From an archaeon (GTDB taxonomy: Archaea; Iainarchaeota; Iainarchaeia; Iainarchaeales; Iainarchaeaceae): a stretch of DNA of 35,262 nt. This document shows positions 661 to 34,505 of this stretch, piece by piece; within the stretch, counting starts at the first letter, position 1, and each line of letters starts with the position of its first letter. Made by a program: the position numbers and the translations under genes. The stretch lies in NCBI GenBank assembly GCA_024653905.1, contig JANLGZ010000034.1, positions 1 to 35,262 of the forward strand, given 5' to 3'. A model generated the notes under the pieces. It was not told the DNA's origin, made no database searches, and saw nothing but the letters and a program-made list of their open reading frames with translations.

Positions 661-2094
661 TTATCCGTTCTTGTCGAGATGTCTTGCGCCTCTGAAATTA
701 TCTATTTCTCCAGCGTAAAGAGCGGTAAAATCTTTTATTATTTTTTTTGCCTCTTCCATATTTCCTGAGGTGTGCTTATAATGATCAATAACTAGGTCAG
801 TGTTTACCTCTAGAAGTAGTTTGTATGCTTGTTCATCAGGAATACTCATATTATTAATAAAAATCAAATCAGAGTTCTTGAATTTCTTAAAAAAATCATC
901 TGCTCCGCCCAGTTTTCCCTGTTTAATAAGAGTATAATATAATGGGCTTCCAGGGTAAGGGGTTACAGGTCTGATTGTTCTGCATTGATCATAAGTGTTA
1001 TATTTCATTATAAAATTGGCGTTGTTTCTCAGTGTTTCTGCAGTATCCCCAAAGTTGTTCCAAATGAAATTCAGACCCATTCCTACTCCGCCGACTTTTT
1101 TCACAACCTCAAGGGCATTAATGTTCTTTTTTACAGTAGTGTTCTTGTCCATTATTCTCAACACTTCATCATCAGATGACTCAAAACCAAAGTTAATGAA
1201 TGTGCATCCGCATCTTTTAAGTATTTCTATAAGTTCCTCATCAATTAAATCAACACGAGCATTGCATGAAAATTTTATTTTAAGATTTGCCTCTTTAAGG
1301 GCTTTCTCAAACTCACGCAGGCGTGATTTTGAAAGTACAAAAAGTTCGTCTAAGAAATAATAGCATGTAACCCCGTATCTTTCATAAAGAATCTTTAATT
1401 CTTCTATAATATTCTGGAGGCTTCTTACTCTAATTCCTCTTTCGAGCCTATAACAAAAATTACATCTGTTGATGCATCCTCTGCTTGAAAGAAAAACAAA
1501 AGTTTTTTCTCCTGGGTCCTGTTTGAAAAATTTTATTGAGTTAACATATTTTTCCATTGGGAAAATTTCCCAAAGAGGAAAAGGAATTTCATCAATATTA
1601 CTGATAGGAGCATCTCTTTCGTTAACAATCGGTTCTCCATTTTCTGTGTATGCAATGCCTTTGATTTCATTCAACGGCTTGTTGTTTATTTTTGCATCCA
1701 AAAGTTTGATTATTCCTTTTTCAAATTCACCAATTGCAATTATATCGGCTTTTGTTTCTTTGAGCAGATATTCCGGAATTGGAGATGGACCAGAACCCCC
1801 GAGAACAAACCATGCATTTTTTTTATGGGCATTAATTGTTTCGCATAGCTCTCTTACGGTTTCCTCGAAACGTGCTGCCATGAAGCCCACGCCTATCAAA
1901 TCATACTCATTTTCATCAAGGTGTTTGGCAAGTTCCTCATTAGTATAATGAAAAATATCCATACAATATGATTCTACCTGAGCGCCCTTCTCATGCAGGA
2001 CAGCAGCAAGATATGCCGGACCAAGCGGAAGAAGATTATCATCTTGGTAAACATCATGAATAATGAAAAGAACCTTGTTTTTCTTTGTAAACAT
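661..2094 (-). CDS. B12-binding-domain radical SAM protein
   Basis: CxxxCxxC motif 'SSRGCINRCNFCYR' after an N-terminal cobalamin-binding-like domain ('LGGSGPSPIPEYLL'). ATG at 2094; the ORF track starts at a TTG one codon earlier. Confidence 0.88.
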   Translation of the reverse strand: MFTKKNKVLFIIHDVYQDDNLLPLGPAYLAAVLHEKGAQVESYCMDIFHYTNEELAKHLDENEYDLIGVGFMAARFEETVRELCETINAHKKNAWFVLGGSGPSPIPEYLLKETKADIIAIGEFEKGIIKLLDAKINNKPLNEIKGIAYTENGEPIVNERDAPISNIDEIPFPLWEIFPMEKYVNSIKFFKQDPGEKTFVFLSSRGCINRCNFCYRLERGIRVRSLQNIIEELKILYERYGVTCYYFLDELFVLSKSRLREFEKALKEANLKIKFSCNARVDLIDEELIEILKRCGCTFINFGFESSDDEVLRIMDKNTTVKKNINALEVVKKVGGVGMGLNFIWNNFGDTAETLRNNANFIMKYNTYDQCRTIRPVTPYPGSPLYYTLIKQGKLGGADDFFKKFKNSDLIFINNMSIPDEQAYKLLLEVNTDLVIDHYKHTSGNMEEAKKIIKDFTALYAGEIDNFRGARHLDKNG

Positions 2095-2250
2095 CAATTT
2101 AACCTTTTAAATCTGTATTTTTGTATACAGAGGAATAGTAAATATTTTTCACAACCTTGTTTAAAACACTTGTCTTTTTTCTTTCTGCCGTATTTTTTGG
2201 CGAATTACCAATTATTGTTGTAACAAAAATAATATTAACAACAAAATTTC

Positions 2251-2278: not shown

Positions 2279-2965
2279 ATGAACAATTACGATATTCTGG
2301 CAATAATTCCTGCAAGAGGCGGTTCTAAAGGCTTGCTGAAAAAAAACATTAAACCGCTTAACAAAAGGCCGCTTATTTATTATGCGATTAGTGAAGCTAA
2401 AAAAGCAGGGATAAAAAGAATTGTTGTTTCCACTGATAATAAAGAAATAGAAAAAGCAGCAGTTAAATACGGAAGCCAAACAATTATTCGACCTAAAAAA
2501 CTTGCAAAAGATTCAACCCCTATGTTACCTGTAATAAAACATGCCTTGTCAGTTTTGCGTAAAGAAAAATATTCTCCTGATATTGTTTTGGTTTTGCAGC
2601 CAACCAGCCCGCTCAGAAAAGCTTCTGACATAAAAAAAGCATTGAAACTTCTTTATGTTTCAAAAGCAGATTCAGTTATTTCTGTTACAAAACTAAAAAA
2701 ACCTATAGAATGGGTTCTTGAAAAAAATAACAAAGGTTTTCTTGTGAATAATTCAAGCAAAAAAATTTATGCAAGACAGCAGGCTAAAGAAAGGTATTAT
2801 CCTAATGGCGCAATCTTTGTATCCTGGACAGAATCAATCCTGAAAAATAACCTTCTTTATGGCCCTAAAACAACAGGTTATGTAATGCCTGAGGAATCAT
2901 CTGTTGATATTGATACAGAACTTGATTTTATTCTTGCAGAAAAATTGTTGAAGGGGAAAAAATGA
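2279..2965 (+). CDS. legF: Acylneuraminate / CMP-nonulosonate cytidylyltransferase (NeuA/LegF family)
   Basis: N-terminal 'IIPARGGSKGLLKKNIKPLNKRPLIYYAI' signature; 'VLVLQPTSPLR'; 'DIDTELDF' C-terminal motif; overlaps the neuB-like gene by 4 nt. Confidence 0.92.
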   Translation: MNNYDILAIIPARGGSKGLLKKNIKPLNKRPLIYYAISEAKKAGIKRIVVSTDNKEIEKAAVKYGSQTIIRPKKLAKDSTPMLPVIKHALSVLRKEKYSPDIVLVLQPTSPLRKASDIKKALKLLYVSKADSVISVTKLKKPIEWVLEKNNKGFLVNNSSKKIYARQQAKERYYPNGAIFVSWTESILKNNLLYGPKTTGYVMPEESSVDIDTELDFILAEKLLKGKK

Positions 2966-4011
2966 ACATAAAAATAGGCAAAAAAAATATAGGTCCTAAT
3001 GAAAGAGCATTTATTATTGCTGAAGCCGGGGTCAACCATAATGGCAGTTTCAGGATAGCAAAGAAGCTAGTGGATGAAGCGGTTGTTGCAGGGGTTGATG
3101 CAATAAAATTTCAGACTTTTTCTGCAGACCGATTAGTCACAATTGATGCCCCCAAAGCAGATTATCAGAAAAAAAATACTCATAATTCCGCTTCACAATA
3201 TTCAATGCTGAAAAAACTCGAGTTAAGTGAAAAGAACCAAACGGCACTGAAAAAATATTGTGATTCAAAGAAAATAATTTTCCTTTCTACACCCCATTCA
3301 GGAATTGAGGATGTAGATTTTTTGTCAAATTTAAATGTTGAGGCTTTCAAAATTTCTTCAGCGGATTTAACTAATATTCCTCTTATTGAATATGCTGCAA
3401 AGAAACGAAAACCAATAATTTTGAGTACAGGGATGTCTAGCTTTGAAGAGATTTCAAAAGCAGTGAACGCAATAAGAAAAAGAGGCAATAAACAAATAAT
3501 TCTGCTTCAGTGTACAACCTCCTATCCTTGTCCTCCAGAGGATGTTAATCTTCTTGCAATGAAAACAATGGAAAAAAAATTCAAACTTCACATTGGATTT
3601 TCGGATCATACTACTGGGTTATTGGCAGCACAATTAGCTGTTGCTATGGGGGCAAAGGTAATTGAGAAGCATTTCACACTTGATAAAAATATGCCTGGGC
3701 CAGACCATTGTGCTTCTATCAATCCGAAACAGCTTTCAGAATTTGTTTTAGGGATAAGATTAGTTGAGAAAATACTGGGGTCTGAGAAAAAAACAGTTTT
3801 ACAATCTGAAAAGAGTAATCTAAAAACAATCAGAAAAGGCATTTATGTGGCACAATCCATATTAAAAGGCACTAAAATTACTCGAAAAATGCTTTGCATA
3901 AAAAGACCTTTTGCAGGGTTGCTTCCTGAAAAAATTGTTTCAATTATAGGAAAAAAAGCAGTGAAAAATCTTGAAAAGGATACTCCTCTGAAAAAGAATT
4001 ATGTGCGTTGA
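2962..4011 (+). CDS. legI: N-acetylneuraminate/legionaminate synthase (NeuB/LegI family) with C-terminal SAF domain
   Basis: 'FIIAEAGVNHNGSF', 'DAIKFQTF', 'IILSTGMSSFEEI', 'LLQCTTSYPCPPEDVNL', 'GFSDHTTG', 'VIEKHFTLDKNMPGPDHCAS'; SAF-like 'RKGIYVAQSILKGTKI' near the C-terminus. Confidence 0.96.
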   Translation: MNIKIGKKNIGPNERAFIIAEAGVNHNGSFRIAKKLVDEAVVAGVDAIKFQTFSADRLVTIDAPKADYQKKNTHNSASQYSMLKKLELSEKNQTALKKYCDSKKIIFLSTPHSGIEDVDFLSNLNVEAFKISSADLTNIPLIEYAAKKRKPIILSTGMSSFEEISKAVNAIRKRGNKQIILLQCTTSYPCPPEDVNLLAMKTMEKKFKLHIGFSDHTTGLLAAQLAVAMGAKVIEKHFTLDKNMPGPDHCASINPKQLSEFVLGIRLVEKILGSEKKTVLQSEKSNLKTIRKGIYVAQSILKGTKITRKMLCIKRPFAGLLPEKIVSIIGKKAVKNLEKDTPLKKNYVR

Positions 4012-4014
4012 GTT

Positions 4015-5163
4015 TCAATTATCAAAATTTTTTTTCTGAAGAAGCTTTTGATTTATATTAGTTTTTGCAAGTATTTGGCAAATTTTTTTGCCAGTAGTTC
4101 CATTGCCATAAATTATTTTTGCGTTTTTTGCTTTTTTAATAAAGTTTTTATCAAACAGTGCTTTTCTAATCGCGTTTTCAATTTTTTTTGCATCATGAGG
4201 AGTATTAATTACATTTGTGCTTCTTTCTCTTCCGTCCTGTCGGATTCCGATGTTAATTGCAGGTATTCCGAATGCCGTGCTTTCTATTACTCCGCTACTT
4301 GAGTTGCCGAGTATACCTCCTGAAAATTTTAAAATGCTAAGATATTCTTTTTGTGAGAGATTTTTACATACAATAATCTGTTTTCCTGCCTGTTTTTTTA
4401 TTTGTGTTATCATTTTTCTGGCGCCGGAATCAGAGTTAGGGTAAATCAAGATCGTCTGTACTTTTGATTTAATAACTGCATCAAGCGTTTCTTTCATCTG
4501 CATTCCTGCTTTTTCAGATTCAGTTGTCACAGGGTGCTGAACCACAATAATAAATTTTTCTTCGGGGATAATTCCAAATTTTTTTCCAATCCATTTTTTG
4601 TCAAACAATTTTGCGTTAAGAATCGTGTCCATGCAAGGTGCTCCGACAATATTTATTCTCCAATTGGATTCGCCCATTTTTCTTATTCTTTCAGCGCTTT
4701 TTTTTGTTGCCGGAAAATGAATGTTTGCAAGTTTTGTGATTGCGTGTCTTACAGATTCATCAATTCCTGCCCTGCTTATGTCTCCACCGTGAAGGTGTGC
4801 AATTGGAATATTCATATAAACTGCCGCAATTGCTCCGGCAAAAGCTTCTGTTCTATCCCCAAGAACAACAAGAAAATCAGGTTTTATTTTTTTCATTGCA
4901 TTTGCAATTCCTGCAATTCCTTTCCCCATTGATTCAGCCATAGAAAAACCAGTGTCCTTTTCAGGGTTCATTTTGACTCTGGCGCTAATTTTAAAACCGT
5001 CTTTTTCTATTTCCTTTACACTGTATCCGAATTCTTTTGAGAGGTGCATTCCAGTTGCTATTACAAAAAGCTTAAGTTTCGGGTGATTTTTGATTTCTTT
5101 CATCACAGGTTTCAAAAGGCCGTATTCTGCTCTTGTTCCGGTCAGTACACACACTTTAATCAT
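4015..5163 (-). CDS. legG: Hydrolysing UDP/GDP-sugar 2-epimerase (NeuC/LegG family)
   Basis: 'VCVLTGTRAEYGLLKPVMKEI', 'VLGDRTEAFAGAIAA', 'PIAHLHGGDISRAGIDESVRHAITKLANIHF', 'GNSSSGVIESTAFGIPAINIGIRQDGRER'. Confidence 0.94.
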   Translation of the reverse strand: MIKVCVLTGTRAEYGLLKPVMKEIKNHPKLKLFVIATGMHLSKEFGYSVKEIEKDGFKISARVKMNPEKDTGFSMAESMGKGIAGIANAMKKIKPDFLVVLGDRTEAFAGAIAAVYMNIPIAHLHGGDISRAGIDESVRHAITKLANIHFPATKKSAERIRKMGESNWRINIVGAPCMDTILNAKLFDKKWIGKKFGIIPEEKFIIVVQHPVTTESEKAGMQMKETLDAVIKSKVQTILIYPNSDSGARKMITQIKKQAGKQIIVCKNLSQKEYLSILKFSGGILGNSSSGVIESTAFGIPAINIGIRQDGRERSTNVINTPHDAKKIENAIRKALFDKNFIKKAKNAKIIYGNGTTGKKICQILAKTNINQKLLQKKNFDN

Positions 5164-5906
5164 TTGAGTTCAGCTCTCCATAAAATTAGTTTTTTACCTT
5201 TGTTATGTAGATATGCTCCGTTGTAGGGTTTTGAAAAGGCCCTTATTTTTCTTGATATTTCTTCAAGAGTTTCGTTTTTGAGATCAATGCAATTGCTGTT
5301 TTTTTCAGGCTTTTCAAATTCACTTGCCTTTGATTCGTCCTGCTTTTTCCAAAGAACCTTTTTTTGTGCGATAAGAGGTAAGTATTTTTTCACAAGTTTC
5401 TTTCCTGTCTCAATAACCTTTTCATAAACTTCAAAAGAGTGATCGTTTTTTTCAATCAAGAATTTTTCCTGTCCTGCAATATCTCCGTTGTCTATTCCAT
5501 CAGAAACACGGAACATTGTTACTCCTGATTCCTTCCAACCGTGGAGAATGCTGTTTATAATTGGAGCTGGACCCCTTCCTTTTGGCAGAAGAGTCGGATG
5601 AAAACCAATGAATCCTTCTTTTGGCATGCTCAAAATTTCTTTACTAATAACCTGCCTCCATCCGCACATAACAATCAAATCCGGTGCAAGTTTTTTGATT
5701 AATTTTGCTTCAAGGTCTAATCTTTCTATTTCAAAAACATCAATTCCGAACTCTTTCCACTTTTTGATTTCTATTCCATCATACATTACGGTTTTTGTTC
5801 CATCTGCAAGAGTGATTATGCCGGTGATGTTTATCCCTTCAAGATTAATTGCTTCTTTAAGCAGCTCATATCCAAATCGATTAGCAGATAGCCACAATAT
5901 ATTCAT
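5160..5906 (-). CDS. Formyltransferase-family protein (Fmt/ArnA-like; probable sugar N-formyltransferase)
   Basis: 'GFHPTLLPKGRGPAPIINSILHGWKESGVTMFRVSDGIDNGDIAGQ' formyltransferase core with His and Asp; Fmt-C-like 'RKIRAFSKPYNGAYL'. ATG 5906 or GTG 5915 start; overlaps legG by 4 nt. Confidence 0.88.
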   Translation of the reverse strand: MNILWLSANRFGYELLKEAINLEGINITGIITLADGTKTVMYDGIEIKKWKEFGIDVFEIERLDLEAKLIKKLAPDLIVMCGWRQVISKEILSMPKEGFIGFHPTLLPKGRGPAPIINSILHGWKESGVTMFRVSDGIDNGDIAGQEKFLIEKNDHSFEVYEKVIETGKKLVKKYLPLIAQKKVLWKKQDESKASEFEKPEKNSNCIDLKNETLEEISRKIRAFSKPYNGAYLHNKGKKLILWRAELK

Positions 5907-5908
5907 TG

Positions 5909-6550
5909 CTACCACGTTTCCCTGATAATCATGAATGCTTCCGCGTTCTCTGTGCAGATTTCACTTCCGCGTTTTCCTGACAAAAGTTGTATTCCCTTTG
6001 CACTTCTAGGGTGAGGGTTTTTTTTCACTTCAGATTTGTAAATTTCAAATGCGCTTATTTTCTTTTTTAAAAATTTTGTTATATCTACCCAAAAATTCGG
6101 GCGGAATGTATCAACACCCCATTCAGTTTCCGAAAGTGTTTCATAACAAAGCAGTCTTATTTTTTTTGGAGGTCTAACTGCAACCATAGTGCCGTTGAAA
6201 ACCATTGCATGATCCTGATTTAAATCACCCCAAAAATTAGTGTACACAATATCGGGATTTACTTTTTCAACAATTTCTGTTATTTTTTTATTAATTTCTC
6301 CATGGGCTATTTCATTAAGTTTTATAGTTGGAAAATCCAGATTGAATCTTTTTTTTATTTTAAGCAGTTTGTCAACTTTTTTTTGCTCTTGAATTTTTTT
6401 TGCAATATATTCCTTTGACCATTTTGGTTCATGCGCTTTTGTAACAATGCAAACATAAACATCATCTCCATCGGAAACGTGTTTGCAAATCGTTCCGCCA
6501 ACCCCAAGTATTTCATCATCCGGATGTGCGCCTACAACAAGTACCTTCAT
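5909..6550 (-). CDS. PIG-L/LmbE-family zinc-dependent N-deacetylase
   Basis: 'VLVVGAHPDDEILGVGGTI' (HPDDE) and 'NQDHAMV'. The ATG at 6550 is preceded by 'aaaaggagctgaaaaa' (Shine-Dalgarno), so it is preferred over the longer track start at 6586. Confidence 0.92.
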   Translation of the reverse strand: MKVLVVGAHPDDEILGVGGTICKHVSDGDDVYVCIVTKAHEPKWSKEYIAKKIQEQKKVDKLLKIKKRFNLDFPTIKLNEIAHGEINKKITEIVEKVNPDIVYTNFWGDLNQDHAMVFNGTMVAVRPPKKIRLLCYETLSETEWGVDTFRPNFWVDITKFLKKKISAFEIYKSEVKKNPHPRSAKGIQLLSGKRGSEICTENAEAFMIIRETW

Positions 6551-6642
6551 TTTTTCAGCTCCTTTTAATACTGTTAATTCACTCAAATTAAAATGTTTGG
6601 GTACATTCCTTAATCTGTTTAAAGTTGGCTAATTAGAAATTG

Positions 6643-6656
6643 TTTTTAAATATAAA
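6643..6656 (+). promoter_or_regulatory. Archaeal TATA box, leaderless-type spacing
   Basis: 'tttttaaatataaa' centred about 25 bp before ATG 6674. Confidence 0.6.
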
Positions 6657-6673
6657 GCCTCACTATTTGGTTA

Positions 6674-7072
6674 ATGTCCTCTGAAAGATTCAAAGAATGG
6701 GTAATGCCAAAAATAGAAGAAGGAAAACTTACTCAATATAATTGGCTGGTTCAGCACAAGAAAGGTCTTGTTTTGGGTGAGAAAACCGATATAGGTGCGT
6801 TTACTTACATTAATGCAAAGAACGGAGTGGAAATTAAGGAACTTTGTCAGGTTGGTTCGCATTGCAGTATTTATAGTGAATCAACAATCGATGGTAAAAC
6901 TGGCAAAGTTATTTTGGAAAAAAATAGCAGAATAGGTTCACATACAGTAATAATGCCTGGGGTTACAATAGGCGAGAACAGCATTATAGGTGCCCATAGT
7001 TTTGTGAACAAAGACATTCCTGCTAACGTCGTTGCTATTGGATGCCCTGCAAAAGTAATTAAAAAATTGTGA
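6674..7072 (+). CDS. Left-handed beta-helix (hexapeptide repeat) acyltransferase, LegH-position N-acetyltransferase
   Basis: Imperfect hexapeptide repeats 'NSRIGSHTVIMPGVTIGENSIIGAHSFVNKDIPANVVAIGCPAKVIKKL'; located next to LegC/LegB-like genes. Confidence 0.88.
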   Translation: MSSERFKEWVMPKIEEGKLTQYNWLVQHKKGLVLGEKTDIGAFTYINAKNGVEIKELCQVGSHCSIYSESTIDGKTGKVILEKNSRIGSHTVIMPGVTIGENSIIGAHSFVNKDIPANVVAIGCPAKVIKKL

Positions 7073-7075
7073 GAA

Positions 7076-8224
7076 ATGTTTTTTATGGAAAAAAAATCAA
7101 TACCTCTTTTCAAAATTTATTGGGATGAGGCAGATGTGAAATCTGTTGAATCTGTTATAAGACGCGGAACTTATTGGGCTACGGGTCCTGAGATTGCGGA
7201 ATTTGAAAAAAATATTGCTAAATATATTGGCAGAGCGTATTGCGTAGCATTCAATTCTGGCACATCTGCTTTGCATTGCATGCTTCTTGCATACAATATT
7301 ACAAGCGGTGAAGTAATAGTTCCTTCATTTACTTTTATTGCTACTGCAAATTCTGTTGTCATGGCCGGAGCAAAACCGGTTTTTGCGGAAGTTGAGGAAG
7401 AAACATTTGGTCTTGATGTTAAGGATGTTGAAAAGAAAATAAATGAAAAAACAAAAGCAATTATTATAATGCATTATGGTGGCATGCCTTGCCGTGATAC
7501 TCTGGCAATAAAAAAGTTGGCAAAAGAAAAAAATTTGTTTTTTTTCGAAGATGCTGCAGAGTCGTGTGGTGCAGAAATTAACGGAAAAAAAGTATCCTCT
7601 TTTGGTGATGCTGCCATACTAAGCTTCTGTCAGAATAAAATAATTACTACAGGAGAAGGCGGAGCAGTGCTTACTGATTCCGAAGAAATTTATGAAAAAC
7701 TCAAATTGTTACGTTCTCATGGAAGACTTGATGAAGGTGAGGATTATTTTTCTTCAACTAAGGATATGGATTACATTAGTTTGGGTTATAATTTCAGAAT
7801 GCCTGCGATGTGTGCGGCACTTGGGAATTCCCAGCTCGTGAAAATTGACAAGATAATTGAATCCAGGAAAAAAAATGCAGAAATTTTCAACAAAGCACTT
7901 TTAGAAATCGATGGGGTGAAAATCCAGAGCAATCCTGAAAATTTTTTCAGTGTTTATCAAATGTATACTATAAAATTAGAGAATAAGTCCGCAAGGGATT
8001 CTCTTCAAGAATATTTACAAAAAAATAATATAACCAGCAAGATTTACTTTCCTCCATTGCACTTAAAGACATTCTATAAAAAAATGGGTTTCGGGAAAGG
8101 CAATCTTCCAAGAACGGAACGCTTGTCAGAGGAGGTTCTCACAATTCCTTTTTACCCGTCTATGACAAGGGATGAAATACTATTAATTTGCGAGAAAATA
8201 GCAGAATGGTCGGAATTAAGGTGA
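7076..8224 (+). CDS. legC: DegT/DnrJ/EryC1/StrS-family PLP aminotransferase (LegC-position)
   Basis: 'FNSGTSALHCMLLAYNI', 'SFCQNKIITTGEGGAV' with the PLP lysine, 'GYNFRMPAMCAALG'. Alternative ATG at 7085. Confidence 0.88.
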   Translation: MFFMEKKSIPLFKIYWDEADVKSVESVIRRGTYWATGPEIAEFEKNIAKYIGRAYCVAFNSGTSALHCMLLAYNITSGEVIVPSFTFIATANSVVMAGAKPVFAEVEEETFGLDVKDVEKKINEKTKAIIIMHYGGMPCRDTLAIKKLAKEKNLFFFEDAAESCGAEINGKKVSSFGDAAILSFCQNKIITTGEGGAVLTDSEEIYEKLKLLRSHGRLDEGEDYFSSTKDMDYISLGYNFRMPAMCAALGNSQLVKIDKIIESRKKNAEIFNKALLEIDGVKIQSNPENFFSVYQMYTIKLENKSARDSLQEYLQKNNITSKIYFPPLHLKTFYKKMGFGKGNLPRTERLSEEVLTIPFYPSMTRDEILLICEKIAEWSELR

Positions 8225-8278
8225 AAAATTGAGTTTTGAACCAGAGAGTATTAAAACATTTTCAGGAGCTTTTTAGTA

Positions 8279-9301
8279 ATGGATGCAGAGAAATTTTTCA
8301 AAGACAAGGATATTCTTGTTACAGGGGGCTGTGGTTCTGTTGGTTCTGAGATAGTAAAACAACTTCTTGAATATGATGTGAAAAGAGTCAGAGTTCTTGA
8401 TAATAGTGAAGTTGCTCAGTTTAATCTTCTTCAACGCATGAAAAACAATCCAAAGCTTAGAGCACTTATTGGGGATATTAGGGATCTCCAAAGAGTAAAA
8501 AGAGCAATGAAAGGGGTTGACATAGTTTTTCATGCTGCAGCACTAAAACACGTTCCATTATGCGAGTACAATCCGTTTGAGGCTGTTTCTACAAATGTTT
8601 ACGGTACTCAGAATCTTGTTAATATTGCAGGCGAAGAAGGGGTTGAAAAATTTATTTCAATAAGTACTGATAAGGCAGTTAATCCTATCAACACAATGGG
8701 GGCAACAAAGCTCTTAAGTGAAAAAATAGTTCTCAATGCTTCGATTGGGGATGTTGATACACAGTTTTCCTGCGTTCGTTTTGGTAATGTTTTGAATTCA
8801 AGCGGTTCTGTAATACCTATTTTTGAAGAGCAGATAAAAAAAGGTGGTCCTGTTACTTTGACTTCAAAAGAGATGGTAAGATTTTTTATGTCTCTTCCAA
8901 ATGCGGTTGAACTCATACTTAAGGCGGCTCAGGAAATGACTTCCAGAGAAATTTTTATACTGAAAATGAATGCTATGAAAATAATTGATCTTGCTGAAAT
9001 TATGATTGAAGAAGTTGCTCCAAAATACGGCTACAATCCTAAAGATATTAAAATAGAAATAATAGGAAAGAGGCCTGGTGAAAAAATTTCGGAATTACTC
9101 ATGACAACTGAAGAAGCAGAATATGCTGTTGAGAAAGATAATCTATTCATAATTAAAGAACAGCCGATAAGCATGTATGCTGCGGGAAAAAAACAATCCC
9201 CTATACAGCCTTTATCAAAGCAATATGATGCTAATAGTGCAAAGCTCCTTAATAGAGAAGAAATAAGAGAACTATTCAAAAATAATAAGAATCAGGACTG
9301 A
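8279..9301 (+). CDS. legB: NDP-GlcNAc 4,6-dehydratase, extended SDR (LegB/PseB/CapD-like)
   Basis: 'ILVTGGCGSVGSEIVKQLLEYDVKRVRVLDNSE', 'ISTDKAVNPINTMGATKLLSEK', 'RFGNVLNSSGSVIPIFEEQIKKGGPVTLTSKEMVRFFMS'; SD 'aggag' at 8264-8268. Confidence 0.9.
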   Translation: MDAEKFFKDKDILVTGGCGSVGSEIVKQLLEYDVKRVRVLDNSEVAQFNLLQRMKNNPKLRALIGDIRDLQRVKRAMKGVDIVFHAAALKHVPLCEYNPFEAVSTNVYGTQNLVNIAGEEGVEKFISISTDKAVNPINTMGATKLLSEKIVLNASIGDVDTQFSCVRFGNVLNSSGSVIPIFEEQIKKGGPVTLTSKEMVRFFMSLPNAVELILKAAQEMTSREIFILKMNAMKIIDLAEIMIEEVAPKYGYNPKDIKIEIIGKRPGEKISELLMTTEEAEYAVEKDNLFIIKEQPISMYAAGKKQSPIQPLSKQYDANSAKLLNREEIRELFKNNKNQD

Positions 9302-9342: not shown

Positions 9343-10779
9343 ATGATTCATATTGAAAGCAGTAAAATTATTTATACAATGGCAATTATTGCGTTTATTC
9401 CAATTCTCATTGTTTGCGCAGGATTCATTCAGAATGCAGATTCTTATGCATCTGCTGATTTGAGTTCTAATATTGTTAATTTGTTTTTTTTGGAAAAATA
9501 CGGTTATTTAGAGAATGCCGCTGAATGGCAAAATGGGAATTTTTTAACTCTCTCATTTTATTTCCCCTTATCTTTTTTCTTTGCCCTGCCGATTTACAAA
9601 CTACTGTTGTTTTTCTCTGTTTCAAATGCGCTTTCATTAAGCGGTTACATTGTTATGCTTTTATCCGTGATTTTTTTATTTCTTATTGCAAAAAAAGAGT
9701 TTGCAAGTTTATCTTTAGGAATTATTTTTCTTTCTCTGGCTTTTTTTAACAAAGTTTCAATTAACACGTTTTTTGAAACCCAAAGAATGGCCACTATTTT
9801 TGCATGGGTTTTCTTTTTGGCATTTATGTTTAAATGTTTTTATATTTTCCGTAAAAAAGAATTCTCTTTCAAGGATGCAGTTTTCGTCGGTCTAACCTGG
9901 TCTCTTTCAGTAATGGCTTATGCACATTTCCTGTTATATGGTTTGTTTGTTTTTCCGTTTATTTTATTAATCAGCGGGTTTGATTTTAAAAAAATCGGGA
10001 TTGTGGCATTATTAGTTTCATTAAATCTTATCTGGATTATTCCCGCATTCGCTTCTTATTCAGATTCTGCTATTTCAATAATGGCATGGTTTTCAAACAT
10101 TCCCTTAACTTTTTTTGCTTTTTCGCTTTTGGTTTTGTCTGCACTCATTTATTTTTCTTTCATTGAAAAAAATGAGGTGACAAAAAAATTTCTCCAGTTT
10201 AATGCATTAATATTTGCATTTATTGTTTCAGGCGTATCAAGTTTTATCCCTGTTTTGAACAAGTTCATGTTTACATTATATCTTCAGTACTTCACAGTTG
10301 TTGCAGTATATTTTTTAATTACAAAAATTTTGTCTTCAGATAAAAAAGTTCTTTATTCAGTGTTTTTGGTTGTCCTTGCTTCATCGGCATATTCTGCTGT
10401 TTATTTTTCTGATTTTAGTGATAGAGTAAATTTTAACAATACTATCTGCAAGGAAGCAGATGGCATTGCGGATGCTATAATAGAACCGTACATGTTTATT
10501 GGTGATTCAAAAGGCTGTTACATTTCGGGTTATTTAGCCACACAGCATGGCAAGATAACTTTATTTGACGGGCTTTCTTATTCGCTTCCCATTCACCTGT
10601 ATGAATCCTATAATGAAATAAAAGCAGAAATTGAGGTTGATTGTGATGCAACAGTTAAACTCATGAAAAAATTAAAAGCAGGCTCTGTTATTTGTACAAA
10701 TGAATTTTGCGAAAAATTAAATTGTATTGAAACAATTGCATCTACTGAAAATCTGCAACTTAAATCATTAAATAATTAG
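9343..10779 (+). CDS. Polytopic integral membrane protein, possible GT-C-type transferase
   Basis: Many hydrophobic segments along 478 aa; first extracytoplasmic-like loop has acidic residues ('NADSYASADLSS'); no firm family motif. Confidence 0.7.
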   Translation: MIHIESSKIIYTMAIIAFIPILIVCAGFIQNADSYASADLSSNIVNLFFLEKYGYLENAAEWQNGNFLTLSFYFPLSFFFALPIYKLLLFFSVSNALSLSGYIVMLLSVIFLFLIAKKEFASLSLGIIFLSLAFFNKVSINTFFETQRMATIFAWVFFLAFMFKCFYIFRKKEFSFKDAVFVGLTWSLSVMAYAHFLLYGLFVFPFILLISGFDFKKIGIVALLVSLNLIWIIPAFASYSDSAISIMAWFSNIPLTFFAFSLLVLSALIYFSFIEKNEVTKKFLQFNALIFAFIVSGVSSFIPVLNKFMFTLYLQYFTVVAVYFLITKILSSDKKVLYSVFLVVLASSAYSAVYFSDFSDRVNFNNTICKEADGIADAIIEPYMFIGDSKGCYISGYLATQHGKITLFDGLSYSLPIHLYESYNEIKAEIEVDCDATVKLMKKLKAGSVICTNEFCEKLNCIETIASTENLQLKSLNN

Positions 10780-11745
10780 TTTTTTTTTATACCAATCAAT
10801 CGCATGTTTTAATCCTGATTCGAATGGTTCTTTTGCTTCAAAACCAATTATTTTTTTTGCCTTTGAATTATCGCTTGCTCTTCTTGGCTGGCCGTCAGGA
10901 TAACTTGAATCTAATACAAGTTTCTTTTTTGATCCAGATATTTTTAGTATCATTTCAGCAAGTTCCTTTATGCTGATTTCCTGATTGCTTCCGAGATTTA
11001 AAGGGTCTGCAACAGGGTATTTTTCACAAACTTCAAGCAGACCTTTAGCAAGATCTTTGACATAAATAAACGATCTTGTTTGTTTTCCAGAGCCCCAAAC
11101 AACCATTTCGTCGCCTTTTGCAAAGGCTTTTTTTATCAATGCAGCAATCACATGGGAGGTATTATCATCATACTTATCCCGCGGACCATAAGCATTATAG
11201 GGTCTTGCAATAGCTATTTTCATCCCAAATTCTTCATAATACGCTTTTGCCTGTATTTCGCCTAGTCTTTTTGCCCAGCCATAACCGTAATTTGTGGGTT
11301 CAGGACTATCTTTGAATCCTTCACTTTCAGGCGTTGGAATTGTTACTTTTCTTGGATAAACACAAGCACTGCTAACAACCAAAAATCGTTCAATTCCTTC
11401 AATACGGCTTGCCTCCAGTATGTTGGTGTTCATAATAATATTTTCAGTTAATATTGAACCTGGGTGTTTAATGTTATACTCTATACCCGCAACATTACTG
11501 GCAAGGTTTAGTACAATATCCATATTTTTTACTGCTTTTTTACAGTCTTTTTCATTAGAAAGGTCAGCATTGATTATTTTGATTTTTTCAGGATTTTCAA
11601 TATTCTGTTTGATTTTTTTGCTTTTAGAATCTCTCACAGTTATTGCGGTATTTGCGTCTAATTTAATCAGTTCATCAACTACATGGCTCCCTACAAAACC
11701 AGCTCCGCCTGTTACTAATACATTTTTGTTTTTATAAAATGACAT
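10768..11745 (-). CDS. NAD-dependent sugar epimerase/reductase (GDP-L-fucose synthase / ColC-like extended SDR)
   Basis: 'NVLVTGGAGFVGSHVVDELI', 'VSSACVYPRKVTIPTPESEGFKDSPEPTNYGYGWAKRLGE' and 'RPYNAYGPRDKYDDNTSHVIAALIKKA' resemble the Fcl/WcaG subgroup. Confidence 0.82.
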   Translation of the reverse strand: MSFYKNKNVLVTGGAGFVGSHVVDELIKLDANTAITVRDSKSKKIKQNIENPEKIKIINADLSNEKDCKKAVKNMDIVLNLASNVAGIEYNIKHPGSILTENIIMNTNILEASRIEGIERFLVVSSACVYPRKVTIPTPESEGFKDSPEPTNYGYGWAKRLGEIQAKAYYEEFGMKIAIARPYNAYGPRDKYDDNTSHVIAALIKKAFAKGDEMVVWGSGKQTRSFIYVKDLAKGLLEVCEKYPVADPLNLGSNQEISIKELAEMILKISGSKKKLVLDSSYPDGQPRRASDNSKAKKIIGFEAKEPFESGLKHAIDWYKKKLII

Positions 11746-11872: not shown

Positions 11873-13123
11873 TTATCCCCCTTCAAATTCGATTAAATTA
11901 AAAACTTTATATCCTGCTTTTTCAAGTTTATTTTTTCCGCCTAAATCCGGGAGATCGATTATAAAACTGCATTCAACAATTTCTCCGCCAAGTTTAGTAA
12001 TAAGTTTACAAGCAGCCAATGCGGTTCCTCCTGTTGCTATTAAATCATCAGCAAGCAGAACTTTATCTCCTTTTTCAATTGCGTCTTTATGAATCTCTAT
12101 TTTATCTTTTCCATATTCAAGGTCATATTCTTCAAAAATTGTTTCAGCAGGAAGTTTGCCTGGTTTTCTGATTAAAACAAAGCCTAATCCTAATCTATTA
12201 GCCAGAACTGCGCCTGTGATAAAACCTCTGGATTCTATTCCAACAACAACATCGATTTTTTTATTTTTGTACCTTTCCACCAGCAAATCAATCATCTGAT
12301 TAAAACCGCCTTTGTCTTTGAGAAGAGTTGTTATGTCCCTGAACATTATGCCTTTTTTCGGCCAGTCTGGAACAGTTCTTATTTTCGATTTTATAATTTT
12401 TTGAATATCAATTTTTTCTTTTTTATTTTCTTTTAAATTTGAAATCAGTCCCTTTACAAGTAAGAATGAATTTTTTGATGCTGCTTTGCAGAATTCTGTA
12501 AAATCAATTGCTGCTGAATGATCGGCTTTATCTGAAATTGATCTGATTATCAAATGAGGCATATTATTTAATTCGCATACATGTGCTACGCTGGCGCTTT
12601 CCATGTCAACACAATCTCCTTTGAATTCTTTTCTTAGTGCTTCGGATTTTTCTTTTGTGGTTATGAATTGGTCTCCTGTAAGTATTCTTCCCTCGATTGC
12701 ATTCAATCCGATTGATTTTGCTGAAGATGAAGCGATTTTTCTTAGTTCTTCAGAAGCAGTAAAAATCCTTAGTTCTGTGAAAGGAATTTGGCCTTTTTCA
12801 AAGCCTAAATCTTCAGCATTGATATCATGCTGTATACTATCTTTTGAGATAACTATATCTTTTATATTTAAATCCGGATTGAGTGCTCCTGCAACACCTG
12901 TAAAAATAATTGATGATACTTTGAAATTAATAATCAATATTTGAGTGCATATTGCAGAATTAACTTTTCCTGCACCGGATTTAACAATCACAACTTCTTT
13001 GTTTGCTAATTTTCCTGAAAAAAATGTAAATCCGCATAATTCTGTTTTAATCATTCCTTCTAACTCAGATAAGTATAATTCTATTTCTTCATCCATTGCC
13101 CCAATCAGACCTATTTTTTGCAT
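11873..13123 (-). CDS. Fusion: 5'-methylthioadenosine/SAH nucleosidase (MTAN) + adenine phosphoribosyltransferase (APT)
   Basis: N-terminal '[14 protein letters not shown]', '[10 protein letters not shown]', '[12 protein letters not shown]', 'RSISDKAD' (MTAN catalytic Glu/Glu/Asp present); C-terminal '[23 protein letters not shown]', '[33 protein letters not shown]', PRPP loop '[17 protein letters not shown]'. One uninterrupted 416-aa ORF. Confidence 0.95.
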
Positions 13124-13179: not shown

Positions 13180-14493
13180 TTAGAAATTTTTGACCATTTT
13201 ACGGGATTTAATGTATTCAAGAGATTTTTTCCTTTCTGCTTTTAATTCCTCATTTGACATCACATCATGTTTGAAAATAAAATCTGCATCCATTTCTTCT
13301 TCCTTTCCAAGACCAAGTGTCATTATATATTTTTTGAAATCCTCTTCATCCATTTCCAAACCGAATGTTTGCATATTATCATGAATGTCACATCCAGGAA
13401 ACGGAACTAAAGTTGAAACATCAACTGCGTCAGGATTTGTTTCATCACAGAATTTTATTAATCTATCCGCATAACCTGGTTTTTCTCCAGGCAAACCTAT
13501 TATGAAAAAAGTCCTTACCTGCATTCCTACTTTTTTCGCGATTTTTATAGCGCTTTTTACATCTTCAATTTTTATTCCTTTGTTTATTTTTTCAATTACA
13601 TTAGGATCAAGAGACTCAACACCGTAAGAAATTTCTTCGCACCCTGCATCTTTCATCAGTTGTAAAATTTCTTCAGTTATTTGATCAACTCTTGTTCCTG
13701 CTCTCCACCTGATTTTAAACGGCTTTATTTTTTCGCATACTTCTTTTATCCAGTCTTTTCTTGCAGTAATAGTATCATCATGGAATCTAAAATTTGTAAC
13801 ATTATACTTGTCTATAATGTATTTTATTTCTTTTACAACATTTTCAGGGGTTCTTAATCTTAATCTTCTTTGCCACATTTTTTTGCTTGCACAGAATGCA
13901 CAATTGAAAGGGCATCCTCTTGAAGTAATTACTGTTGCTGTGGGGCCAGCCCCGACAAAAAGCCCGTTTGCACTGAAAACATTTTCAAAAGGCAGCATAT
14001 CTCTGGCAGGAAATGGAATGCTATCCAGATCTTTAATAAGAACACTTTGGTAAATTCTTTTTTCATTATTGCCTTTTCTAAAATCATCTAATATTTCCAG
14101 TATTGTGTTTTCGCCTTCTCCTATTCCAATTTTGTCAAAAATAATATCTATTTTATCAGGTACGGATGTTGCATGTATTCCTCCGATTATTGCCCAGGAA
14201 TCCTTATTTTTGGATTTTGCGATTTCGGCGATTTTTTTGGCTGCGAGATAATCAGGAGTAGTGGCGGTTAGCGCATATACATCCGAATTCCCTATATACT
14301 TTGAAAATTCTTCCGGAGCTTTACATCTCAAATCAGTTATGACAACATTATATCCTTCTTTTAGAGTAACCGCGGCTAAGTACATTATACCAAGTTCTGG
14401 GTTTCTCATTTCATCGCCCAGATAAGGTTTTGGAGGTATTAAAAATTCTATTTTTGTGTCCTTTTTTTCCATTATTTTTTTTCCAGAATCCAT
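13180..14493 (-). CDS. B12-binding-domain radical SAM protein
   Basis: 'ITSRGCPFNCAFCASKKMW' CxxxCxxC; N-terminal 'WAIIGGIHATSVPDKI' cobalamin-binding-like domain. Confidence 0.9.
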   Translation of the reverse strand: MDSGKKIMEKKDTKIEFLIPPKPYLGDEMRNPELGIMYLAAVTLKEGYNVVITDLRCKAPEEFSKYIGNSDVYALTATTPDYLAAKKIAEIAKSKNKDSWAIIGGIHATSVPDKIDIIFDKIGIGEGENTILEILDDFRKGNNEKRIYQSVLIKDLDSIPFPARDMLPFENVFSANGLFVGAGPTATVITSRGCPFNCAFCASKKMWQRRLRLRTPENVVKEIKYIIDKYNVTNFRFHDDTITARKDWIKEVCEKIKPFKIRWRAGTRVDQITEEILQLMKDAGCEEISYGVESLDPNVIEKINKGIKIEDVKSAIKIAKKVGMQVRTFFIIGLPGEKPGYADRLIKFCDETNPDAVDVSTLVPFPGCDIHDNMQTFGLEMDEEDFKKYIMTLGLGKEEEMDADFIFKHDVMSNEELKAERKKSLEYIKSRKMVKNF

Positions 14494-18417: not shown

Positions 18418-19473
<1,056 letters not shown>

Positions 19474-22198: not shown

Positions 22199-23758
22199 TT
22201 ATTGAGTGATTTTAAATATTGGTTTTGGCGCAGTTCCTGATTGTTCGGGTTCTTCCTTAACTTGTTTCATTGCGGCTGATTTTTTCCAAAAATCAATATC
22301 TAATAAGTATTTCATAAATGTTCTTCCGCCCATTAAAAGCCTTCTGGCTTCGCGAGGCTGAGTAATCGCAACTTTTAATCTTCCAAGCACATAAGATGGC
22401 CGCATGTAAAATTCCTTTCTTCCCCAATCGCATCCCTCTACAAGCTCTTTGGCTGTTAATTTATCTGTGCTTAAAATAGTATTATGAGTCCCTTCAGGAG
22501 TTAACCAGTCTTCCCAGTTCTTTGTTTTCAAAAAATCATTATCTACTGCCCACTTATATGCTGTTGTTCCGGGATAAAGCATTAGTGGAAAAAATTGTGC
22601 AGTATCAGGATCAAGTTTTTTTGCCCATTCAACAGTAGCCTTGATTGTTTCTTTTGTTTCTCCATTATTTCCAAGCATAAAACAACCGTGAACCAACAAT
22701 TTTGCTTTTTTGGTGTCCACCATAAACTGTTCAATCCTGCTAATTACAGTTCCTTTTTTTATGTTGTTCAATATTTGTTGATTTGAACTTTCAAATCCAA
22801 CACAAAGCAATCTACACCCTGCTTTTTTCATCCATTGCATTGTTTCAAGATCAACATCAGCTCTTGCATTGCATGTCCATGCAATTTTTATTTTTCTTTT
22901 AATAATTTCTTTAGCAATCTCAACCATTCTTTCTTTATCCTGGGTTAAAGTATCATCCTCAATCATAATGTCCTTGACATAAGGCAGGTTTTTTGTAATC
23001 CATTCAAATTCATCAACAACATTTTTCACACTTCGTGCTCTGTAAGTTTGTCCTGTTAAAGTCTGCGGGAACTTGCAAAAAGTGCACCTGAATTTACATC
23101 CTCTTCCTGTAATTATTGTAACCTCAGGAAACAAAACTGAAGGATAAAAATAATCTCTGATTTTTAAGTGCCTATTGTAAACATCGCTTACAAATGGCAT
23201 ATCATCTAATTCTTTTTCTTCAAGCGGAGTTCTATTTGGAGTAAATTTTGTTTCTCCTTTTTCAGAATAAGTTATTCCAAGAACCTTGCCTAGGGGTTTA
23301 TTATTTTCAAGAGCGTCTGCTAAATCTCTTATTGTGTGGTCGTATTCTCCTCTTGCAATAAAATCAATGCTATTGCTTGTTTTCAAACATTCTTCGGGAA
23401 GAGCACTAACGTGTGTTCCAACCATAATTAGTTTTGAATTAGGATTTACTTTTTTTAATGCGTCTGCAACTTTCACGTCATTTTTGAATGAAGCAGTTAC
23501 TGTATCAAGAACCATAAGTTCAGGTTTCCATTCCTCAACCAATTTAATGACATCATCCTGAGTCATTCCGTTAGCTGGGGCATCAATTAGTTTTACTTCG
23601 TGCCCTGCTTTTTCCATTACTCCAGTTGCATAACCCAGCCAGATTGGATAGTAAACACATCCGCCTTTGCTGATAGCTGGGCTTCTAGAGGTTCTAGAAA
23701 ACCTGTACAGGAACGGTGGACTTAACATCAATACTTTCATCTTTTTCACCAAAAACAA
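22199..23758 (-). CDS. B12-binding-domain radical SAM protein
   Basis: 'ITGRGCKFRCTFCKFPQT' CxxxCxxC; 'MVGTHVSALPEECLKTSNSIDFIARGE' B12-binding-like region. Alternative start at MKVLML (about 23740). Confidence 0.9.
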   Translation of the reverse strand: MFLVKKMKVLMLSPPFLYRFSRTSRSPAISKGGCVYYPIWLGYATGVMEKAGHEVKLIDAPANGMTQDDVIKLVEEWKPELMVLDTVTASFKNDVKVADALKKVNPNSKLIMVGTHVSALPEECLKTSNSIDFIARGEYDHTIRDLADALENNKPLGKVLGITYSEKGETKFTPNRTPLEEKELDDMPFVSDVYNRHLKIRDYFYPSVLFPEVTIITGRGCKFRCTFCKFPQTLTGQTYRARSVKNVVDEFEWITKNLPYVKDIMIEDDTLTQDKERMVEIAKEIIKRKIKIAWTCNARADVDLETMQWMKKAGCRLLCVGFESSNQQILNNIKKGTVISRIEQFMVDTKKAKLLVHGCFMLGNNGETKETIKATVEWAKKLDPDTAQFFPLMLYPGTTAYKWAVDNDFLKTKNWEDWLTPEGTHNTILSTDKLTAKELVEGCDWGRKEFYMRPSYVLGRLKVAITQPREARRLLMGGRTFMKYLLDIDFWKKSAAMKQVKEEPEQSGTAPKPIFKITQ

Positions 23759-26397: not shown

Positions 26398-27489
26398 ATG
26401 ATTCCGATTTCAAAACCTTTTCTTGAGGGAAATGAGTTAAAATATGTTACTGAGGCAGTTGAATCAAACTGGGTTTCCTCAATAGGAAAGTACATTCCTT
26501 TGTTTGAAGAAAGTTTTGCTTCATTTATAGGTTCTAACTTCGGAGTGGCTGTTTCGAATGGTACGGTTGCACTTCACTTAGGTCTTGAAGCTCTTGGTAT
26601 TGGAAAAGGTGATGAGGTTATTGTGCCTGATTTGACTTTTGTTGCTTCGCCAAATTCCATTATTTACACTGGTGCCAAGCCGGTTTTTGCTGATGTTTCA
26701 AAAGAAAACTGGAATATTGATCCTGAAGCAATCCGGGAAAAAATAACAAAAAAAACCAAAGCAATAATGCCGGTTCATCTTTATGGTGCTCCGTGTAAAA
26801 TGGATGAAATAATGGAAATTGCAGTTGAAAATGATTTGAAAGTTATTGAGGATTGTGCAGAGTCTCATGGTGCAGAATTTAATGGAAAAAAACTGGGTTC
26901 TTTTGGTGACTGTGGCACATTCAGTTTTTACGGAAATAAAATAATGACTTCTGGTGAAGGCGGTATTGTTACAACTAACAATGAGGAGCTTGCTGAAAAA
27001 ATGATGCTGCTTCGTGACCATGCCATGAGCAAAAAAAAGAGATACTGGCATGAAATAGTAGGATTTAATTACAGAATTACTAATCTTCAGGCTGCTCTTG
27101 GTCTTGCACAAACTGAAAAAATAAATTTTTTTATTGAAAGAAGAGATAAGATTGCAGAAAAATATAATTCTCTGCTTAAAGATGTAAAAGGCATTACTCT
27201 TCAGAAAGAAATTCCTAACTCAAAAAATGTCTGCTGGCTTTATTCTGTTTTGATTGAAGATGAATTCGGAAAAAGCAGAAATGAAGTAATGAAACTTCTT
27301 GCCGAAAAAGGGATTGACTCAAGGCCGTTTTTTTATCCTTGCCATACAATGCCACCTTACCTGAAAAAAGAATCTTTTCCAGTAAGCGAAAATCTTTCTT
27401 TGAAAGGAATGAACCTACCAACCTTTATAGGTCTGAAGGACGAGGAAATAGAGTTTATTGCAGATACAATTATTTCTCTTAAAGAATAG
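26398..27489 (+). CDS. DegT/DnrJ/EryC1/StrS-family aminotransferase, perosamine-synthase-like
   Basis: 'VSNGTVALHLGLEALGIGKGDEVIVPDLTFVASPNSI', 'FSFYGNKIMTSGEGGIVTTNN' (PLP Lys present), 'LRDHAMSKKKRYWHEIVGFNYRITNLQAALGLAQTEKI'. Confidence 0.9.
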   Translation: MIPISKPFLEGNELKYVTEAVESNWVSSIGKYIPLFEESFASFIGSNFGVAVSNGTVALHLGLEALGIGKGDEVIVPDLTFVASPNSIIYTGAKPVFADVSKENWNIDPEAIREKITKKTKAIMPVHLYGAPCKMDEIMEIAVENDLKVIEDCAESHGAEFNGKKLGSFGDCGTFSFYGNKIMTSGEGGIVTTNNEELAEKMMLLRDHAMSKKKRYWHEIVGFNYRITNLQAALGLAQTEKINFFIERRDKIAEKYNSLLKDVKGITLQKEIPNSKNVCWLYSVLIEDEFGKSRNEVMKLLAEKGIDSRPFFYPCHTMPPYLKKESFPVSENLSLKGMNLPTFIGLKDEEIEFIADTIISLKE

Positions 27490-33142: not shown

Positions 33143-34018
33143 TCAAATTAGTAATTTTCCGAATCTTAAACTTCCAATAAATCTGCTTAACTTTACTGCC
33201 AGCATATACCCAATTCCGCCAAGAATTATTACTGCTGTGTGAAGCGGGCTTTTGTTTTCCAGAAAAGTAATTCCTCTCGGAGAACTTAAATTCATTTTTT
33301 TTCCTTTTTCCCAGGTGCCTGTTGCAACTCTAAAATCCTGTAGTGGATCAACAAGAAACCCGTGTTTTATATGCAAAAATTCTTCACAAACTTTTGTAGG
33401 GTGCTTTTTGTAAAGAAGTACATCATTCTGGTGGTAATAAAGCCTTCGGAGAACATGCTTAACTAATCCCAAAAAACCCTGGGGCTTCACTTCTTTATGG
33501 TCATGAGTATAATTTGGTTTGATTAGTTTGAATTCATAACCAAGATCCATTATTTTAAAACTCAAATCAGTATCCTCGCGATAATAAGTATATTCTTCAT
33601 CATAACCCCCGACTTGTTCTAGAAGTTCTTTTCGAAAACCAGTGGATGTTCCGCCGTAATAATCATACCCGCTTACAATTCCTATTTTTTCTGAATTAAA
33701 ACCATCTGCCATTTTTTGCAACCAATTTTTTTCTGCAATACAGTCATGATCCATATTTATTACAATTTCATATTTAGAATTTGCAATTCCTTTGTTGCGT
33801 GCTTTACAGACCCCTGAATTTTTTTGGTGAAAAACCTTAAGTTTCCTTTCTTTTCCTTTTTTGTAATCATCAAGAAATTCCTTTGTACCATCTTTTGAAC
33901 CATCATTAACAACAATAAGTTCATATTTTCCTTTGAAATTCTGTTTCAAAAGTGAATTCAGGGTTTTCTCAAGAGTTTTTTTGTTGTTATAAGTAGCAAC
34001 TACAATACTTGCGTTCAT
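33143..34018 (-). CDS. Glycosyltransferase family 2
   Basis: 'SIVVATYNNKKTLEKTLNSLLKQNFKGKYELIVVNDGSKDGTKEFL', 'NMDHDCIAEKNWLQKM', 'YREDTDLSFKIMDLGYEF'. Confidence 0.92.
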   Translation of the reverse strand: MNASIVVATYNNKKTLEKTLNSLLKQNFKGKYELIVVNDGSKDGTKEFLDDYKKGKERKLKVFHQKNSGVCKARNKGIANSKYEIVINMDHDCIAEKNWLQKMADGFNSEKIGIVSGYDYYGGTSTGFRKELLEQVGGYDEEYTYYREDTDLSFKIMDLGYEFKLIKPNYTHDHKEVKPQGFLGLVKHVLRRLYYHQNDVLLYKKHPTKVCEEFLHIKHGFLVDPLQDFRVATGTWEKGKKMNLSSPRGITFLENKSPLHTAVIILGGIGYMLAVKLSRFIGSLRFGKLLI

Positions 34019-34497: not shown

Positions 34498-34505
34498 AAA
34501 ATCAC

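What the first reader, a model, noticed from the sequence alone, without database searches (positions are those of the whole stretch)
4015..6550. Deacetylase-formyltransferase-NeuC operon: candidate N-formyl nonulosonic acid pathway
Seen: on the minus strand PIG-L deacetylase, formyltransferase and NeuC-like epimerase are packed with a 2-bp gap and a 4-nt overlap, and are surrounded by LegF/I on one side and LegH/C/B on the other. Known: PIG-L enzymes remove N-acetyl groups from amino sugars and ArnA/Fmt-like enzymes N-formylate amino sugars using formyl-tetrahydrofolate. Inference: one N-acetyl (C5 or C7 in the final sugar, or on a UDP/GDP precursor) is removed and replaced by N-formyl, giving an N-formyl legionaminic-type acid. 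I do not know of such a pathway described for an archaeon.
Basis: partly seen in the sequence, partly recalled or inferred. Interest (0 to 1): 0.7.

Follow-up and report, generated by a model that had tools for sequence, protein, structure and literature searches.

The report
Acetyl-to-formyl swap in archaeal sialic-acid-like sugar
This archaeal gene cluster most likely makes a sialic-acid-like sugar in which one acetyl cap is cut off and replaced by a formyl cap, and the same deacetylase-plus-formyltransferase pair supplies a step that was not named in the published pathway of a haloarchaeon known to carry this sugar.

Summary
In detail: NeuC, formyltransferase (FT) and PIG-L form a tight minus-strand operon inside a complete legionaminic-type gene set. 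(1) The archaeal product is already known: Halorubrum sp. PV6 carries 5-N-formyl-legionaminic acid, with a candidate FT beside NeuC (PMC6137143). (2) I located that cluster (L135); the gene between neuD and legI, never mentioned in the paper, is a PIG-L deacetylase. (3) PIG-L and FT co-occur beside NeuC across archaea and bacteria and change together in 6 of 6 independent tree comparisons. (4) One DPANN archaeon fuses NeuA-NeuB-PIG-L and FT-NeuC. (5) The PIG-L-linked FTs are a clade whose catalytic Asn is replaced by Gly or Ala; in held-out genomes 17 of 20 FTs lacking the Asn, but 0 of 18 with it, sit beside PIG-L. (6) PIG-L + one FT + one acetyltransferase fits the measured Leg(Ac,Fo) mass of 302.10 Da. 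Best model: PIG-L removes the C2 N-acetyl (C5 of the final sugar) and FT formylates it, probably before NeuC. The sugar is not new; the deacetylation step, the Gly-FT subfamily and the swappable cassette appear undescribed in the open papers searched. No enzyme was assayed.

The parts
5909..6550 (-). PIG-L family deacetylase: proposed remover of the C2 (final C5) N-acetyl
   Evidence: PF02585; AHPDDE metal motif and distal DH invariant in 30 NulO-locus homologues; model pLDDT 94, nearest folds BC1534, BshB, diacetylchitobiose deacetylase
5160..5906 (-). Formyltransferase FT1, Gly-variant (catalytic Asn position is Gly101; His103 and Asp139 kept)
   Evidence: PF00551/PF02911; FT1 clade; model pLDDT 94, nearest fold ArnA formyltransferase domain
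4015..5163 (-). NeuC/LegG hydrolysing UDP-sugar 2-epimerase
   Evidence: TIGR03568 over cut-off; nearest solved structure is N,N'-diacetylbacillosamine 2-epimerase (hydrolysing) 5zlr
2279..2965 (+). CMP-NulO cytidylyltransferase (NeuA/LegF-like)
   Evidence: PF02348
2962..4011 (+). NulO synthase (NeuB/LegI)
   Evidence: TIGR03569 over cut-off
6674..7072 (+). Hexapeptide acetyltransferase (LegH-like), proposed C4 N-acetylation
   Evidence: PF00132; the same gene follows NeuC in L021, L022, L028 and L147
7076..8224 (+). DegT/PseC/LegC-type aminotransferase
   Evidence: PF01041
8279..9301 (+). UDP-GlcNAc 4,6-dehydratase (PF02719, PglF/PseB-like; LegB role)
   Evidence: PF02719 E 4.8e-106

Best explanation
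The cluster makes an N-formyl legionaminic-type acid, most likely Leg5Fo7Ac (stereochemistry unproven). LegB, LegC and LegH build UDP-2,4-diacetamido-2,4,6-trideoxyglucose. PIG-L removes the C2 N-acetyl, FT1 puts a formyl from 10-formyl-tetrahydrofolate on the freed amine, NeuC hydrolyses and epimerises the sugar, NeuB condenses it with PEP so that old C2 becomes C5, and NeuA makes the CMP sugar. Shown by sequence: the operon, the families, their conserved association, the fusions, and the presence of the same set in the known producer. Inferred: every catalytic step, C5 as the site (about 0.75), and action on the UDP sugar before NeuC (about 0.55; the free mannose-type sugar or the finished NulO are the alternatives).
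For: PV6-type cluster L135 has the same trio, two published primer sequences at 0 mismatches and matching ORF lengths; residue mass 302.10 Da observed, 302.11 calculated for one acetyl plus one formyl (ions from PMC6137143); PIG-L and FT associated beside NeuC (p 4e-5; 6/6 independent pairs); fusions NeuA-NeuB-PIG-L and FT-NeuC in L187; Gly/Ala-FT always with PIG-L in NeuC loci (20/20) and 17/20 versus 0/18 in held-out genomes; acetyltransferase present with one FT (10/10), absent with two FTs (0/7); FolD present in the genome.
Against: No activity has been shown. The FT1 catalytic Asn is missing, with no known replacement. Three Gly-FTs lack a PIG-L neighbour (L151, L152, L154). 14 NeuC loci have PIG-L with no FT1 seen (one, L038, has FT1 further out), so PIG-L alone does not imply formylation. 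The counting rule was found and counted on the same loci. In PV6 PIG-L is not in the transcription unit of the FT.
Confidence: 0.78

Rival explanations
1. FT formylates the C4 amine (C7 of the NulO), as PseJ does in Pse5Ac7Fo synthesis, and PIG-L acts on the C4 acetyl or on something else.
For: PseJ is a known NulO-pathway FT and is detectably related (6ci2, E 6.5e-13). FTs in loci without PIG-L mostly also lack an acetyltransferase, consistent with C7 formylation by Asn-type FTs (L033, L089, L134, L141).
Against: The window keeps an acetyltransferase, and C4 formylation needs no deacetylase. PV6, with the same set, is reported as 5-N-formyl (PMC6137143). Sister L134 swaps to an Asn-type FT with no PIG-L and no acetyltransferase.
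Confidence: 0.12
2. PIG-L and FT serve another sugar: PIG-L a GlcNAc-lipid, FT the perosamine-like sugar encoded elsewhere in the island.
For: The window also has a GDP-mannose dehydratase (18418-19473) and further DegT aminotransferases (26398-27489, 31983-33131). FT-PIG-L pairs exist outside NulO clusters.
Against: Overlapping operon with NeuC; conserved across distant phyla beside NeuC/NeuB; fused to NeuA-NeuB and NeuC. FT1 is a clade apart from the Asn-type FTs. The perosamine-like genes lie 9 kb or more away.
Confidence: 0.06
3. FT1 is not a formyltransferase any more: with Gly for the catalytic Asn it transfers another group or hydrolyses.
For: The catalytic Asn is missing in all 20 NulO-linked FT1s.
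Against: PV6 has one Gly-FT as the only FT found in its cluster region and carries N-formyl-legionaminic acid (PMC6137143). The fold is that of the ArnA formyltransferase domain (TM 0.88-0.90), and His and Asp are invariant.
Confidence: 0.05

Closest known systems
5-N-formyl-legionaminic acid cluster of Halorubrum sp. PV6 (HrrPV6_1046-1053; PMC6137143)
   Same: LegB, C, F, G, I, FT1, a hexapeptide acetyltransferase and (found here) PIG-L; known N-formyl product
   Different: Other gene order and strand arrangement (PIG-L with LegI, FT1 with NeuC); NeuD-type rather than short LegH-type acetyltransferase; proteins 27-46% identical to the window's; the paper names no deacetylase
PseJ, N-formyltransferase of Pse5Ac7Fo synthesis (PDB 6ci2)
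   Same: FT-fold enzyme in a NulO pathway
   Different: By general knowledge acts on the C4 amine in place of the acetyltransferase, no deacetylase; only a partial, weak match (residues 48-189)
ArnA / sugar N-formyltransferases (WbkC, VioF, QdtF, WlaRD)
   Same: Fold, His and Asp of the triad, proposed folate donor
   Different: They formylate C3 or C4 amines made by transamination (general knowledge); here an N-acetyl is proposed to be removed first, and the Asn is Gly
PIG-L/LmbE deacetylases (BshB, MshB, diacetylchitobiose deacetylase)
   Same: Family, metal motif, N2-acetyl of a GlcNAc-type sugar as substrate class
   Different: Substrate here proposed to be UDP-diNAcBac; 21-24% identity to the nearest solved structures by fold
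Leg5GluNMe7Ac of a Clostridium flagellin (PMC5207245)
   Same: The C5 nitrogen carries a non-acetyl cap; PIG-L loci without FT1 often carry an ATP-grasp ligase, some with two methyltransferases, as such a cap would need (inference)
   Different: Aminoacyl cap instead of formyl; that species' own cluster was not examined

Membership tests
Legionaminic-type NulO pathway | 4,6-dehydratase, aminotransferase, acetyltransferase, hydrolysing 2-epimerase, synthase and CMP-transferase together | tested here: met
   All six families present at 2279-9301
Legionaminic-type NulO pathway | Product is legionaminic acid itself rather than an epimer | not testable with these tools
   Stereochemistry needs NMR
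5-N-formyl-legionaminic acid pathway (Halorubrum PV6 type) | FT1-type formyltransferase with NeuC in a Leg cluster | tested here: met
   L135 FT and window FT are in one supported clade, 100/97
5-N-formyl-legionaminic acid pathway (Halorubrum PV6 type) | Formyl group at N5 of the product | not testable with these tools
   Reported for PV6 (PMC6137143); unknown for this organism
PIG-L deacetylase family | AHPDD metal motif and distal His | tested here: met
   Invariant H9, D11, D12, E13, D113, H114
Folate-dependent sugar N-formyltransferases | Asn-His-Asp catalytic triad | tested here: not met
   His103 and Asp139 present, the Asn position is Gly101; filed as a variant that works like an FT, not as a canonical member
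Folate-dependent sugar N-formyltransferases | FT fold | tested here: met
   TM-score 0.88-0.90 to the ArnA formyltransferase domain
PseJ-type 7-N-formyl pathway | FT replaces the C4 acetyltransferase, no deacetylase | tested here: not met
   Both a LegH-like acetyltransferase and PIG-L are present

The most novel reading that the evidence does not exclude
PIG-L plus a Gly-variant formyltransferase is an undescribed, mobile N-acyl exchange cassette for the C2 amine of 2,4-diamino-6-deoxy (and related) sugars in archaea and bacteria. It feeds legionaminic acids (Leg5Fo7Ac; predicted Leg5Fo7Fo where a second, Asn-type FT replaces the acetyltransferase) and bacillosamine-like sugars, and the same kind of PIG-L can be coupled to an ATP-grasp ligase to give aminoacyl caps.
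Probability: 0.55. Interest if true: 0.72.

Novelty: new variant of a known kind. Interest (0 to 1): 0.62.

Why it matters
5-N-formyl-legionaminic acid caps an archaeal S-layer glycan and a virus spike glycan, yet how an N-acetyl from UDP-GlcNAc becomes N-formyl at C5 was left open in the published pathway. A named deacetylase, a recognisable formyltransferase subfamily and simple gene-count rules make the step directly testable in a cultured archaeon, and would allow the cap chemistry of microbial sialic-acid-like sugars to be predicted from genomes.

Tried and rejected
Orthologues within the window's own phylum: none beyond distant FTs, so the trio is sporadic there. Sinorhizobium and Priestia plasmid PIG-L hits: no FT alongside. 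SSU rRNA was not found in the genome; S6e was used instead. Sigma-70-type promoter and terminator scans: at or near chance level. Paper searches for PIG-L with legionaminic acid or with formyltransferase gave one paper each (a Pseudomonas syringae LPS-core study and a bile salt hydrolase preprint, by title); I read neither. Rejected: FT as methionyl-tRNA Fmt (below that model's cut-off; archaea initiate without formyl-Met, general knowledge); FT as PurN (a separate PurN-like gene lies beside FolD). A second PIG-L elsewhere in the genome (contig 14, 50 bits) was not followed.

Full report
Observation. Pfam and NCBIfam support each family and each flanking Leg gene. The organism is an archaeon by its S6e protein, with a 1.15-Mb, 92% complete genome. 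It has FolD directly beside a PurN-like FT (C58:19298-20340), a plausible source of 10-formyl-tetrahydrofolate.

Known product. Halorubrum sp. PV6 carries an N-linked pentasaccharide ending in 5-N-formyl-legionaminic acid. The authors named LegB, C, F, G, H and I, a possible FT (HrrPV6_1050) and NeuD (1051), but no deacetylase, and the number 1052 does not occur in the main text (PMC6137143). Searching 400 genomes of the haloarchaeal class with NeuC gave 22 with a match. One locus, L135, contains two published primer sequences with no mismatch, and its legC, legB, legF, legG, FT and neuD ORFs are 1140, 1026, 723, 1164, 954 and 630 bp against published products of 1139, 1025, 722, 1163, 953 and 629; legI is 1059 against 1053. 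It is the PV6 cluster or one nearly identical. Between neuD and legI lies a 669-bp PIG-L gene (PF02585 E 1e-27). The published doubly charged ions 1546.65 and 1697.70 give a residue of 302.10 Da; legionaminic acid with one acetyl and one formyl calculates to 302.11. One FT, one acetyltransferase and one deacetylase are what that sugar needs.

Co-occurrence. Eighty NeuC loci from GTDB genomes were annotated with HMMs built here. PIG-L lies within 3 kb of NeuC in 21, FT in 13, both in 10 (Fisher p 4e-5). Close to the window the order is NeuB-PIG-L-FT-NeuC-LegH in Woesearchaeota and other DPANN archaea; related sets occur in Parcubacteria, Mcinerneyibacteriota, haloarchaea, Clostridiales and a deltaproteobacterium. 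On a NeuC tree of 102 rows, FT1 and PIG-L changed together in 6 of 6 independent pairs on well-supported branches (median p 0.031). Distance matrices of PIG-L, FT1 and NeuC correlate at r 0.91-0.93.

Fusions. In L187, from the archaeal phylum of L022, NeuA, NeuB and PIG-L form one 899-aa open frame, and FT1 and NeuC form the next, 696 aa, without stops or ambiguous bases. This is the most direct sequence evidence that both extra enzymes serve the nonulosonic acid pathway. Both frames contain AAT-repeat (poly-Asn) stretches, so the assembly should be confirmed.

Two kinds of FT. The FTs beside PIG-L have Gly (19) or Ala (1) where methionyl-tRNA formyltransferase and ArnA have the catalytic Asn; His103 and Asp139 are kept. 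All 20 lie in a NeuC locus with PIG-L. Thirteen FTs keep Asn: eight are second FTs in a locus that also has FT1, five are in loci without PIG-L. FT1s plus a Sulfitobacter FT, also Gly and also paired with PIG-L but without NeuC, form a supported clade (100/97). As a held-out test I searched two further phyla with the FT1 alignment: 17 of 20 FTs lacking Asn (Gly, one Cys) had PIG-L within 1.5 kb, against 0 of 18 with Asn, most of them Fmt-like (Fisher p 4e-8). One of the 17 (L150) rests on a weak PIG-L hit, some loci are near-copies, and three Gly-FTs next to aminotransferases lack PIG-L.

Counting rule. Ten loci with PIG-L, one FT1 and enough flanking sequence all carry a hexapeptide acetyltransferase; seven haloarchaeal loci with PIG-L and two FTs carry none within the searched span (p 5e-5 overall, 0.008 within haloarchaea). 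I read this as Leg5Fo7Ac versus a predicted Leg5Fo7Fo. Sister NeuCs L134 (Asn-FT, no PIG-L, no acetyltransferase) and L135 would make 7-formyl and 5-formyl isomers. The rule was seen in and counted on the same loci, so it needs an independent test; L021 carries FT1, a third FT type and LegH.

Other caps and contexts. Of 14 PIG-L NeuC loci in which no FT1 was seen, 6 have an ATP-grasp ligase, three of these with two methyltransferases, which fits caps like the N-methylglutamyl of Leg5GluNMe7Ac (PMC5207245); this is inference. No locus has both FT1 and ATP-grasp. L038, one of the 14, does have FT1 further out (L123). FT-PIG-L pairs also occur beside an initiating sugar transferase, with PglF-like, DegT or NeuD genes in some of them, and no full-scoring NeuC. 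Because those clusters appear to lack a nonulosonate stage, the pair probably acts on the hexosamine, which in the window would be UDP-diNAcBac before NeuC. The order is not proven.

Structure. AlphaFold models of both proteins are confident (pLDDT 94). The closest folds are BC1534, BshB and archaeal diacetylchitobiose deacetylase for PIG-L and the ArnA formyltransferase domain and Fmt for FT.

Limits. No enzyme was assayed. The C5 position rests on the published name of the PV6 sugar; the original structural paper (Kandiba 2012, cited there) was not read. The literature searched is the open-access part only, so a report of the deacetylase in a subscription journal would be missed.

Noticed in passing
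L187:6783-9482 and 9542-11632: Multi-enzyme fusions NeuA-NeuB-PIG-L and FT1-NeuC in a DPANN archaeon, with (AAT)n poly-Asn tracts inside the frames.
   Followed up: yes
L070:7064-9992, L082:6990-9992, L091:6995-10004, L075:8966-9880: NeuC-PIG-L loci with an ATP-grasp ligase (and, in L070, L082 and L091, two methyltransferases) in place of FT1: possible aminoacyl caps on the NulO nitrogen.
   Followed up: partly
L188-L192, L018:9852-13327: FT-PIG-L pairs next to an initiating sugar transferase (PglC-like), some with PglF-, DegT- and NeuD-like genes and no full NeuC: possible N-formyl bacillosamine-type sugars.
   Followed up: partly
L151, L152, L154: Gly-type FTs next to a DegT aminotransferase but without PIG-L; they break the association rule.
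   Followed up: no
window 11873-13123: Nucleosidase/phosphorylase domain (PF01048) fused to a phosphoribosyltransferase domain (PF00156), a possible nucleoside-to-nucleotide salvage fusion.
   Followed up: no
window 34018-34958: Adjacent Glyco_tran_28_C and Alg14-like genes, an Alg13/Alg14-like pair.
   Followed up: no
window 18418-19473, 26398-27489, 31983-33131: GDP-mannose 4,6-dehydratase and two further DegT aminotransferases: a second amino-sugar pathway in the same island.
   Followed up: no
L135:9472-9493: The primer printed in PMC6137143 as the legI reverse primer matches the 3' end of legF, so the printed primer labels may be swapped.
   Followed up: partly
window 661-2097, 13180-14493, 22199-23758: Three B12-binding radical SAM proteins scattered through the glycan island.
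   Followed up: no
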